Assembly (NCBI RefSeq): GCF_021026345.1
Contig: NZ_JAJNCZ010000002.1
Location: 620,001 to 684,000 of the forward strand
Source of the DNA: Rhizobium sp. GN54
GTDB taxonomy: Bacteria; Pseudomonadota; Alphaproteobacteria; Rhizobiales; Rhizobiaceae
Reading direction: 5' to 3'
DNA length: 64,000 bases
The first letter of the stretch is position 1. The number at the start of each line of letters is the position of its first letter. Positions 23,964 through 27,167 of the stretch are shown piece after piece. The position numbers were made by a program, and so were the translations under genes. The notes under the pieces were generated by a model, which had not been told where the DNA came from, made no database searches, and worked only from the letters and a program-made list of their open reading frames with translations.

Positions 23964-25340
23964 ATGAAGGTCATCATCTGCGGCGCGGGCCGGGTCGGCT
24001 ACGGCATCGCCGAACGGCTGTCACAGGAAGACAATGACGTCTCGGTCATCGATATCTCTCCCGCGCTGATTGCGGCGATCACCGAGACCCTCGACGTCAG
24101 CGGCGTGGTCGGCCACGGCGCCCATCCGGAAGTGCTGGCGCGCGCCGGCGCGGAGGAGGCGGAGATGATCATCGCCGTCACCCTGCACGACGAGATCAAC
24201 ATGGTGGCCTGCCAGGTCGCCCACTCGCTGTTCAAGGTGCCGACGAAGATCGCGCGTATCCGCGCGCAGAGCTATCTGGCGCCGGAATATTCCGATCTCT
24301 TTTCGCGCGACGACATGCCGATCGACGTGGCGATCTCGCCGGAGATCGAGGTCGGCAAGATGGCGCTGCGCCGGATCTCCTATCCCGGCGCCACCGACGT
24401 TGTACGCTTCGCCGACGACAAGATCGTCATGCTCGCGATCGAGTGCATGGAGGACTGCCCGGTCGTCAATACGCCGCTGCAGCAGTTGACGGAGCTCTTT
24501 CCCGACCTGAAGGCGACGGTCACCGCGGTCTACCGCGAGGGCAAGCTGTTCGTGGCAAGATCCGCCGACGAGCTCCAGACCGGCGACCTCGCCTATGTCG
24601 TCTGCGACGCCGCGCATGTCAGGCGCACCCTGTCGCTGTTCGGCCACGAGGAACAGGAGGCAAGGCGCATCGTCATCGCCGGCGGGGGCAATATCGGCCT
24701 GTTCGTTGCCAAGACGATCGAGCAATTCCAGCCGCGGACGCGCATCAAGATCATCGAGAACAACCGCGAGCGGGCGGTCCATATCGCCGACCAGCTGCGC
24801 AACACGGTGGTGCTGCACGGCTCGGCGCTGGACCAGAAGATCCAGCAGCAGGCCGACATGGAGAATGCCGACCTGTTCGTGGCGCTCACGAACAACGACC
24901 AGATCAACATTCTCGGCAGCGTCATGGCCAAGAGCCTCGGCTGCAGGCAGAGCCTGGTGCTCCTCAACGATCCGGCCTTCCACGACCTGATCGACAGCAT
25001 GGACATCGACGCCCACATCAATCCGCGCGCCGTCACGATCTCCGGCATCCTCCAGCACGTGCGCAAGGGGCGCATCCGCTCGGTCTATGCGGTGCAGAAG
25101 GGGTCGGCCGAGGTGATCGAGGCCGAGGCGCTGGAAACATCGCCGCTGGTCGGCACGGCGCTGCGCGATCTCGAGCTGCCGGAGGGCATCCGCATCGGGG
25201 CGATCTATCGCGACGGAACCGTACTGGCGCCCGGCGGCGAGCTGCGCATCAAGGCCAAGGACCGGGTGGTGCTGCTTGCGACGGGCGACGCGATCCGCCA
25301 CGTCCAGCAGCTCTTCCGCGTCAGCATCCAGTATTTCTAG
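23964..25340 (+). CDS. trkA: Trk system potassium uptake regulatory subunit TrkA
   Basis: TrkA is the cytoplasmic NAD(H)/ATP-binding gating subunit of the Trk potassium channel. The 458-residue protein has two tandem RCK units: the N-terminal Rossmann motif GAGRVGYGIAERL (residues 6-18) with a TrkA_C domain, then a second motif GGGNIGLFVAKTI near 237-249 with its own TrkA_C domain. No membrane channel gene (trkH) is present in the window. It starts 30 bases after ntrX and is commonly linked to ntrYX in alphaproteobacteria. Confidence 0.95.
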   Translation: MKVIICGAGRVGYGIAERLSQEDNDVSVIDISPALIAAITETLDVSGVVGHGAHPEVLARAGAEEAEMIIAVTLHDEINMVACQVAHSLFKVPTKIARIRAQSYLAPEYSDLFSRDDMPIDVAISPEIEVGKMALRRISYPGATDVVRFADDKIVMLAIECMEDCPVVNTPLQQLTELFPDLKATVTAVYREGKLFVARSADELQTGDLAYVVCDAAHVRRTLSLFGHEEQEARRIVIAGGGNIGLFVAKTIEQFQPRTRIKIIENNRERAVHIADQLRNTVVLHGSALDQKIQQQADMENADLFVALTNNDQINILGSVMAKSLGCRQSLVLLNDPAFHDLIDSMDIDAHINPRAVTISGILQHVRKGRIRSVYAVQKGSAEVIEAEALETSPLVGTALRDLELPEGIRIGAIYRDGTVLAPGGELRIKAKDRVVLLATGDAIRHVQQLFRVSIQYF

Positions 25341-25527
25341 CGTCTGTCATTCGTCCGTTCCCGGCGTTGCGGCAGGGAAGTGGTATGATGATTTTTCGAC
25401 ATTGCGGAGAAGTCTGCGATTTGATACCTAAACCGATGGATGGGCGAGATGTGCGTCGCCTGTCTCGGGGCACCAGTGTTTCAGTCAACCGGTCGGCAGG
25501 ACCGGCAATCAAGAAAGAAGCGGCGCG

Positions 25528-25770
25528 ATGGCGGAACGTTCTCAGAATCTGCAAGACCTTTTCCTTAATACCGTTCGCAAGCAAAAGATTTCCCTCACAA
25601 TCTTCCTGATCAACGGCGTGAAGCTGACGGGCGTCGTGACGTCCTTTGACAATTTCTGTGTGCTCCTGCGGCGCGACGGCCACTCGCAGCTCGTCTACAA
25701 GCACGCCATCTCCACCATCATGCCCGGTCAGCCGCTGCAGATGTTCGAGAGTGAAGAAAGCGCCTCCTGA
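25528..25770 (+). CDS. hfq: RNA chaperone Hfq
   Basis: Hfq is the hexameric Sm-like protein that promotes small-RNA/mRNA pairing. The 80-residue product has the Sm1 segment ([29 protein letters not shown]) and the Sm2 motif LVYKHAIST, with a short C-terminal tail, as usual in rhizobia. Because Hfq positively affects nitrogen genes in this group, its position next to ntrBC/ntrYX is notable but common. hflX follows after a 14-base gap. A 187-base gap from trkA suggests its own promoter, though I do not see a convincing one. Confidence 0.97.
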
Positions 25771-25784
25771 CAAGGTGAAGGCCG

Positions 25785-27167
25785 ATTAGCAAACGCGATA
25801 CATCCCAGGATTCGATCGTCCCGGAGCTCGAAAAGCGCCGCGACGATTCGCGTGCCGTCGTCATCGCCCCGGTCATCAAGAAGGGCAGGGCGGATGCCAA
25901 CGGCGTCACCGTGCGCTCGGACGAGGCGCGGCTGGCCGAGGCGATCGGGCTCGCCCGCGCCATCGATCTGGACGTCGTCTTCTCGGCGGTGGTGCCGGTG
26001 AGCCAGCCCAAGCCCGGCACGCTGCTCGGCACCGGCAAGATCGAGGAGATCAAGACGGCGCTGGACGCCAACGACGCGGGGCTGGTGATCGTCGATCATC
26101 CGCTGACGCCGGTGCAGCAGCGCAATCTCGAGAAGGAATGGAACGCCAAGGTCATCGACCGGACCGGGCTCATCCTGGAAATCTTCGGCCGCCGGGCCTC
26201 CACCAAGGAAGGCACGCTGCAGGTCGAGCTTGCCCATCTCAACTACCAGAAGGGCCGGCTGGTCCGCAGCTGGACCCACCTGGAACGCCAGCGCGGCGGT
26301 GCCGGCTTCATGGGCGGCCCGGGTGAAACCCAGATCGAGGCCGACCGCCGGCTGCTGCAGGAGCGGATCGTGCGGCTGGAGCGCGAGCTGGAGCAGGTGC
26401 GCCGCACCCGCCAGCTGCACCGCGCCAAGCGCAAGAAGGTGCCGCACCCGATCGTGGCGCTGGTCGGCTATACCAATGCCGGCAAGTCGACGCTGTTCAA
26501 CCGGATCACCGGGGCGGGCGTGCTGGCCGAGGACATGCTGTTTGCCACGCTCGACCCGACGCTCAGGCGCATGAAGCTGCCGCAGGGCCGCACCGTGATC
26601 CTGTCCGATACCGTCGGTTTCATCTCCGATCTGCCGACCCACCTCGTCGCTGCCTTCCGCGCGACGCTGGAGGAGGTGCTGGAGGCCGATCTGATCCTGC
26701 ACGTGCGCGACATGTCCGACCCCGACAATGGTGCCCAGGCCTCCGACGTGCTGCGCATCCTGGCCGACCTCGGCATTGACGAGAAGGACGGGGCGGAACG
26801 GATCCTGGAGGTCTGGAACAAGATCGACGACCTGCCGGTGGAGGCACGCGAAGCGCTGGTACAGAAGGCCGTGGCCACGCCGAACACGATCGCGGTATCC
26901 GCCCTGACCGGCGAGGGCGTCGATGCGCTGATGAACGAGATCAACCGGCGGCTGTCAGGCGTCCTCGTCGATCGCGACGTGGTGCTGCCGATCGACAAGC
27001 TGCAACTGCTGCCCTGGCTCTACGATCATTCGATCGTCGACGAGCGCGAGGACCAGGAAGACGGCAGCGTGCGCGTCTCCGTGCGGCTGACCGAGACGGA
27101 AGCCTCCGAGCTGGACCGGCGCCTTGGCCATGGCGCCAGGCGCCCGCTCGAGGACTGGGAACGATAG
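25785..27167 (+). CDS. hflX: GTPase HflX, apparent ATT start
   Basis: HflX is a ribosome-associated GTPase that splits stalled or hibernating 70S ribosomes. From 25785 the product would be about 460 residues: a charged N-terminal part with [11 protein letters not shown], the HflX N-terminal domain with GSGK-like [11 protein letters not shown], a helical linker ([15 protein letters not shown]), and the G domain (G1 [10 protein letters not shown]3 [10 protein letters not shown]). The first ATG/GTG/TTG in frame is GTG 25911, but that drops 42 residues that look like normal HflX sequence. ATT 25785 lies seven bases after AAGGTG and is one base away from ATG. Confidence 0.88.

What the first reader, a model, noticed from the sequence alone, without database searches (positions are those of the whole stretch)
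25779..25913. hflX appears to start at an ATT codon
The hflX frame is open from 25779 and holds no ATG, GTG or TTG before GTG 25911. The 42 codons in between encode a plausible HflX N-terminus ([18 protein letters not shown]). ATT at 25785 lies seven bases after AAGGTG, right for a Shine-Dalgarno, and one base away from ATG. ATT starts are rare; infC is the known example and uses it for IF3-dependent autoregulation. HflX also acts on ribosomes, so a similar feedback is an attractive but unproven idea.
Basis: partly seen in the sequence, partly recalled or inferred. Interest (0 to 1): 0.7.

Follow-up and report, generated by a model that had tools for sequence, protein, structure and literature searches.

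The report
hflX starts at AUU, not AUG
The gene for a ribosome-splitting factor in this soil bacterium begins with the rare start codon AUU instead of AUG, and most of its examined close relatives keep AUU, AUC or AUA there, which looks like a deliberate brake on how much of the protein is made.

Summary
The hflX frame 25779-27167 has no ATG, GTG or TTG before GTG 25911. ATT 25785 lies 7 bases after AAGGTG, and an in-frame TGA is three codons upstream. In 117 of 130 Rhizobiaceae genomes examined (26 genera; the most similar of 394 searched) the homologous codon is ATT (80), ATC (29) or ATA (8). In 95 of these no canonical start lies in frame upstream, back to a stop or 45 bases into hfq. Coding constraint begins there: pN/pS is 0.91 over the six codons before and 0.32 over codons 2-21. 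Codon use (ATT 24 of 37) differs from other Ile columns (ATT 134 of 885). At least 17 third-base changes are seen within the class; one genus has moved to a nearby ATG. infC is ATT in 30 of 30 loci read; hfq is ATG in all 117. GTG 25911 would remove the first predicted strand. I conclude that AUH (AUU/AUC/AUA) is the real start, apparently kept weak by selection; other families of the order mostly use TTG. Control by IF3 is plausible but untested. This is a new, conserved member of a known kind.

The parts
25528..25770 (+). hfq, upstream gene, ATG start, TGA stop 25768-25770
   Evidence: hfq start is ATG in 117 of 117 genomes with an AUH hflX
25772..25777 (+). Shine-Dalgarno AAGGTG, 7 bases before ATT
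   Evidence: duplex energy with the 16S tail -4.5 here; -3 or better in 109 of 117 AUH genomes
25776..25778 (+). in-frame TGA that closes the hflX frame upstream, leaving only AGG and CCG before ATT
25785..25787 (+). ATT, inferred start codon of hflX
25785..27167 (+). hflX coding sequence read from ATT (460 aa plus stop), HflX ribosome-splitting GTPase
25788..25847 (+). codons 2-21: N-terminal tail under purifying selection in this frame
   Evidence: pN/pS 0.32 (95% 0.20-0.46), against 0.91 for the 6 codons before AUH
25842..25877 (+). residues 20-31 ([12 protein letters not shown]), first predicted beta strand; lost if translation began at GTG 25911
   Evidence: AlphaFold2 model, strand 20-31, pLDDT 87 for residues 21-30
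25911..25913 (+). GTG, first canonical start-like codon in the frame; rejected as the start

Best explanation
hflX is translated from ATT 25785 by initiator fMet-tRNA, guided by the AAGGTG Shine-Dalgarno. Selection keeps this start at AUU, AUC or AUA and mostly away from AUG, so that little HflX is made next to hfq, whose start is AUG. Shown by sequence: the codon, its conservation, the onset of coding constraint at it, and the rarity of ATG. Inferred: that initiation occurs there, that it is inefficient, and, less surely (about 0.3), that the sensitivity of such starts to IF3 serves as a regulatory link between HflX and ribosome state.
For: Codon: ATT 80, ATC 29, ATA 8 in 117 of 130 family genomes; 95 of the 117 have no ATG/GTG/TTG in frame upstream (back to an in-frame stop or 45 bases into hfq), and 81 have none from there to codon 20. 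In the 94 genomes aligned directly the first two bases are invariant and the third is T, C or A, never G. Coding constraint starts at the codon: pN/pS 0.91 before, 0.32 after; in the set the other two frames after it give 1.6-2.2. Codon use is that of a start, not of an internal Ile: ATT in 24 of 37, against 134 of 885 Ile codons in the 29 other Ile-consensus columns, Fisher p 4e-11 (sequences are related, so p is indicative). Among AUH genomes at least 17 third-base changes on the tree, 6 of them to A. infC control: ATT in 30 of 30 loci read. hfq control: ATG in 117 of 117. Outside the family the first canonical hflX codon is TTG in 31 of 49 and ATG in 3 of 49; E. coli hflX is annotated at a TTG.
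Against: No protein or ribosome-profiling data were seen. 22 of the 117 have a canonical codon upstream in frame; in the one annotated S. meliloti record seen, hflX is annotated from a GTG nine bases upstream. 91 of 117 have ATG or GTG at codons 21-23, which could serve as a shorter start. One genus (g97, 3 genomes) starts at an ATG about two codons further on, so AUG is tolerated somewhere; if that counts as a change of the same start, the tree has one change to ATG. AUH is not universal in the family: g14, g85, g20 and the TTG-using genera lack it.
Confidence: 0.85

Rival explanations
1. Translation starts downstream, at ATG in the 'RDD-M-RAVV' column (codon 22) where present, or at GTG 25911 in the window; the upstream stretch is untranslated.
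For: 88 of 117 AUH genomes have ATG and 3 have GTG at codons 21-23.
Against: Codons 2-21 evolve as protein (pN/pS 0.32). The column is TCG or TCA in the window and the genus members printed, and TCG in the two S. meliloti records there. SD energy there is weaker (median -2.7 against -4.1). GTG 25911 would cut off predicted strand 1.
Confidence: 0.07
2. Translation starts upstream at another codon (GTG in Sinorhizobium, or CTG/ACG) and ATT is an internal Ile.
For: S. meliloti strain Ak57 is annotated from GTG nine bases upstream; 22 of 117 have a canonical codon upstream.
Against: The window has only AGG and CCG before ATT. 30 of 117 have an in-frame stop within 4 codons upstream. Other genomes of g46 and g71, the Sinorhizobium-like genera, have GTT, GTA or CTG at that place. 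No constraint on the 6 codons upstream. ATT-biased codon use is unlike internal Ile.
Confidence: 0.05
3. HflX is joined to Hfq by readthrough or programmed frameshifting, so no start is needed.
For: The genes are adjacent, 11-16 bases apart in 92 of 117.
Against: The distance from the hfq stop to AUH falls in all three frames (49, 31 and 37 genomes) and is 30-192 bases in 23 genomes, so no fixed shift fits; the hfq stop codon varies.
Confidence: 0.01
4. The weak start only sets a fixed, low HflX:Hfq ratio; IF3 sensitivity is a side effect without regulatory use. (A variant of the best explanation, not an alternative to the ATT start.)
For: hflX has a weak but canonical TTG start in most other loci examined (31 of 49 outside the family), which suggests throttling in general.
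Against: The class is TTG in most other families but AUH, as in infC, in the Rhizobiaceae core, and stays AUH through at least 17 changes. This is suggestive only.
Confidence: 0.55

Closest known systems
infC (IF3) with AUU start, E. coli and others
   Same: AUU start with SD; ATT at the start in this genome and in 30 of 30 family loci read; translation-factor gene
   Different: For infC control by IF3 through the AUU is shown (cited in PMC1780047 and PMC2268962, passages read); nothing is shown for hflX. infC was ATT only in those 30, hflX varies ATT/ATC/ATA
pcnB (poly(A) polymerase) with AUU start, E. coli
   Same: Expression limited by an inefficient AUU start (title of Binns and Masters 2002, seen in the reference lists of PMC1780047 and PMC13009471)
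   Different: Unrelated gene; the start is described there as a limit on expression
cvfC1 (AUU) and ccpN (AUA) of Staphylococcus aureus
   Same: Newly found starts of the same class; that of cvfC1 conserved among Staphylococci; about 10% of AUG output in poor medium, up to 30% for ccpN in rich medium (PMC13009471, passages read)
   Different: Mapped by ribosome profiling and reporters there; only comparative evidence here
lepA with proposed AUU start, Borrelia burgdorferi and Bacillus licheniformis (PMC1780047, passages read)
   Same: GTPase gene acting on the ribosome with an inferred AUU start
   Different: Two single species, proposed to restore a full-length reading frame; here 117 genomes
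uORFC-6-1 leader of hflX in Bacillales (PMC8632094, passages read)
   Same: A translation-based control proposed for hflX
   Different: A leader peptide with RNA structure; here no Rfam match and no conserved structure over the start

Membership tests
HflX GTPase | TIGR03156 over the curated cut-off; GTP-bdg_N, GTP-bdg_M, MMR_HSR1 and HflX_C domains | tested here: met
   454 bits against 217; four Pfam domains over cut-off
Genes with an AUU/AUC/AUA start | AUH at the 5' boundary of coding constraint | tested here: met
Genes with an AUU/AUC/AUA start | No usable AUG/GUG/UUG start in frame | tested here: met
   Window: none before codon 43. AUH relatives: 95 of 117 none upstream, 81 of 117 none from there to codon 20
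Genes with an AUU/AUC/AUA start | Shine-Dalgarno in the right place | tested here: met
   109 of 117 at -3 kcal/mol or better by my scoring
Genes with an AUU/AUC/AUA start | AUG avoided although one base away | tested here: met
   No ATG at this codon in the 94 directly aligned genomes; 3 of 130, one genus, start at a nearby ATG. At least 17 changes within ATT/ATC/ATA; that count was made on AUH rows only
Genes with an AUU/AUC/AUA start | Lower output than with AUG | not testable with these tools
   needs a reporter
infC-like IF3-controlled genes | Output rises when IF3 activity falls, and this depends on the start codon | not testable with these tools
   needs an IF3 mutant or depletion
infC-like autoregulated genes | The product represses its own start codon | not testable with these tools
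   no data; HflX is not known (recall) to discriminate start codons

The most novel reading that the evidence does not exclude
In the Rhizobiaceae the AUH start of hflX, set 11-16 bases after the hfq stop in 92 of 117 genomes, is a built-in gauge of ribosome-splitting capacity. When free IF3 or recycling runs short, start-codon discrimination relaxes and unsplit post-termination ribosomes restart at AUH, making more HflX, which splits 70S ribosomes and closes the loop. PMC2268962 (passage read) reports that loss of the recycling factor RRF causes starts at non-canonical codons downstream of stops. Against it: in some genomes, among them two named Agrobacterium, the start lies 130 bases or more from hfq and is still ATT, so the restart part cannot be general.
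Probability: 0.13. Interest if true: 0.85.

Novelty: new member of a known kind. Interest (0 to 1): 0.6.

Why it matters
Few bacterial genes are known to start at AUU, AUC or AUA, and infC is the classic one (recall; PMC1780047, passage read, speaks in 2007 of two examples shown for AUU). A second ribosome-factor gene that keeps such a start across 26 genera, including model symbionts, would extend the class to ribosome rescue and recycling and makes infC-type control of it directly testable. hflX gene models in this group may be wrong: the one annotated Rhizobiaceae record seen here (S. meliloti Ak57) starts at a GTG that overlaps the presumed Shine-Dalgarno. The same test, an Ile-like column with start-like codon use at the onset of coding constraint, could be used to look for more such genes.

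Tried and rejected
Rejected: a start at GTG 25911 or at the codon-22 ATG, an upstream start, and Hfq-HflX frameshifting (see rivals). No conserved RNA structure over the SD and start: the RNAalifold consensus of 13 loci pairs only hfq bases and bases from about codon 12 on. No Rfam match in 24900-26200. The four-codon frame GTG AAG GCC GAT TAG at 25775-25789 looked like a possible leader; its GTG is GTC in two other genomes of the genus (L008, L011) but kept in M. azooxidifex (L050), so I did not pursue it. Literature: no paper holds hflX with 'start codon' and AUU. The one with hflX, hfq, Rhizobium and start codon is about Salmonella by its title, listing only. The one with hflX, UUG and start codon is on structured leader RNAs. 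One search (at least 2 of 6 terms: hflX and non-canonical-start terms) listed 15 of 228 papers; none of the 15 contained hflX, the other 213 were not seen. The library is open-licence PMC only.

Limits of my counts. The 130 family genomes are 30 automatic loci plus 100 fetched out of 394 searched; they are the most similar ones and lean towards the AUH clade. The start in 23 of 117 was placed by hand. Three of the 117 (genus g25) have a TTG two codons before the ATC and are ambiguous. The 94-genome set was filtered to alignments reaching residue 3 and over 45% identity. The 37 are the window plus named loci aligned from residue 3, over 70% identity and near full length, out of 80 named loci. 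'No canonical upstream' was scanned back to an in-frame stop or 45 bases before the hfq stop only. The tree is a quick one of 551 columns, and its 17 changes were counted on AUH rows alone, so they cannot show a change to ATG; with g97 and g14 included the minimum is 20. The comparison of 6 changes to A with 0 to G is therefore crude; with g97 it is 6 against 1. The hfq control: in the 73 genomes outside the 117, 44 had ATG at the aligned place, 23 another codon (probably Hfq N-termini of other length, not checked) and 6 were skipped. The infC loci are the 30 best of 60 matches; some have canonical codons further upstream, and one (L293) has a TTG two codons before ATT.

Full report
What is there. 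The window lies in a 5.57 Mb genome whose nearest named relative at hflX, among the loci returned, is Mycoplana azooxidifex, family Rhizobiaceae (96% identity). The neighbourhood reads ntrY-ntrX-trkA-hfq-hflX, with a mazG-like gene on the other strand after it (names other than hfq and hflX by recall). The hflX frame runs 25779-27167. Upstream it is closed by TGA 25776-25778, leaving AGG, CCG, then ATT 25785. The next canonical start-like codon is GTG 25911. AAGGTG at 25772-25777 is 7 bases before ATT. The protein is a full HflX and the only close HflX match in the genome (the two others are at E 5e-9 and 8e-6).

Conservation of the codon. I examined the hfq-hflX junction in 130 genomes of the family: 30 automatic loci plus 100 fetched, out of 394 searched. 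The homologous codon is ATT in 80, ATC in 29 and ATA in 8, together 117 genomes in 26 genera. The 13 others are genus g97 (3, ATG about two codons further on), g14 (4, GTG) and g85 (6, other or unclear). Three of the 117 (g25) carry TTG-ATC-ATC and are ambiguous. Eleven more family genomes were seven TTG, two GTG, one ATG and one with no canonical codon in the scanned stretch. Named loci with the class include Mycoplana, Shinella, Sinorhizobium, Rhizobium, Neorhizobium, Agrobacterium, Martelella and Hoeflea.

Is it the start? Four tests. (a) Canonical codons: 95 of 117 have none in frame upstream, back to a stop or 45 bases into hfq, and 81 none from there to codon 20; 30 have an in-frame stop within four codons upstream. 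(b) Coding constraint: within-genus pN/pS, averaged by genus over 19 genera, is 0.91 (0.79-1.06) for the six codons before AUH and 0.32 (0.20-0.46) for codons 2-21. With the pairs of the 94-genome set the other two frames over codons 2-21 give 2.2 and 1.6. In the 13 genomes with no canonical codon before codon 24 the value is 0.47 (0.12-0.93), weak because only 14 pairs in 4 genera remain. (c) Codon use: in 37 full-length genes (36 named loci and the window) the column is ATT 24, ATC 11, ATA 2; the 29 other Ile-consensus columns hold ATC 733, ATT 134, ATA 18, Fisher p 4e-11, the sequences being related. (d) ATG: none at this codon in the 94 directly aligned genomes. Among AUH rows the third base changes at least 17 times on the tree, 6 of them to A. 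This count cannot itself show a change to ATG; g97 would add one.

Controls. infC, the classic AUU-start gene, has ATT at its start after a purine-rich SD in 30 of 30 loci read, the window's own genome included (61 genomes searched, the 30 best loci taken). hfq, on the same stretch, is ATG in 117 of 117 AUH genomes. Outside the family, among 49 loci of 23 families, the first canonical in-frame codon near the hfq stop is TTG in 31, GTG in 6, ATG in 3 and none in 9, often as TGATTG overlapping the hfq stop. E. coli K-12 hflX is annotated at a TTG. So hflX carries a weak start in much of the order, and the Rhizobiaceae core went further. In family f2, five loci of four genera (g190, g202, g211 twice, g218) show ATA or ATC with no canonical codon in the first 59 bases after the hfq stop, while four loci of its genus g153 have GTG or TTG. 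This may be an independent case and was not tested for coding onset.

Why not GTG 25911 or codon 22. An AlphaFold2 model from 23 HflX sequences (mean pLDDT 75, pTM 0.67) has its first strand at residues 20-31 counted from ATT (pLDDT 87 for 21-30), while 1-15 are under 50, i.e. a loose tail. GTG 25911 is residue 43 and would remove the strand. ATG at codon 22 is present in many relatives, but the column is TCG or TCA in the window and the genus members printed, TCG in the two S. meliloti records there, and its SD is weaker (median -2.7 against -4.1).

How it works, most likely. The AUH start makes initiation inefficient; a moderate SD in a region without conserved structure still allows it. This limits HflX made from an hfq-hflX message (the dicistronic reading is from PMC2848018, passage read, 'seems to form'). 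HflX was found in S. meliloti proteomics in only one replicate of one fraction (PMC3484140, passage read), which fits low abundance but proves nothing. Raised IF3 inhibits non-canonical starts (PMC2268962, passage read, citing others), and canonical there means AUG, GUG, UUG. Any AUH gene should therefore respond to IF3. HflX splits 70S ribosomes and IF3 keeps subunits apart (PMC9067457, passages read), so a link is reasonable, but nothing here tests it.

Standing. This works like the AUU-start genes infC and pcnB, and by sequence it belongs to the class of AUH-start genes. It is not shown to be autoregulated. Genomes with hfq 86-192 bases away (22 of 117; two named Agrobacterium) keep AUH, so the start, not the coupling to hfq, is the conserved element.

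Noticed in passing
L005:750-752 (Sinorhizobium meliloti Ak57 pSymB record CP090106.1): hflX is annotated from a GTG nine bases before ATT; the GTG overlaps GTGAGGA, the likely Shine-Dalgarno, and is GTT, GTA or CTG in some genomes of g46 and g71. Probably a wrong gene model.
   Followed up: partly
L187, L191, L193 (genus g97): One genus has an ATG about two codons downstream (in L191 directly after an ATC): a natural escape from the AUH start.
   Followed up: partly
L207, L208, L219 (genus g25): TTG-ATC-ATC after an in-frame stop, which looks like an intermediate between the TTG start and the AUH start.
   Followed up: no
L303, L259, L304, L234, L307 (family f2); L129 (Ahrensia kielensis): ATA or ATC in start position of hflX with no nearby canonical codon; possible independent AUH starts.
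   Followed up: partly
L231:673-675 (E. coli K-12): E. coli hflX itself is annotated at a TTG start.
   Followed up: yes
L230, minus strand (own genome, contig C26 near 205657-206151): infC has ATT at its start after GAGGAG; ATT is there in 30 of 30 family loci read.
   Followed up: yes
window 25775-25789: Four-codon frame GTG AAG GCC GAT TAG whose stop overlaps the ATT; its GTG is kept in L050 but is GTC in L008 and L011.
   Followed up: partly
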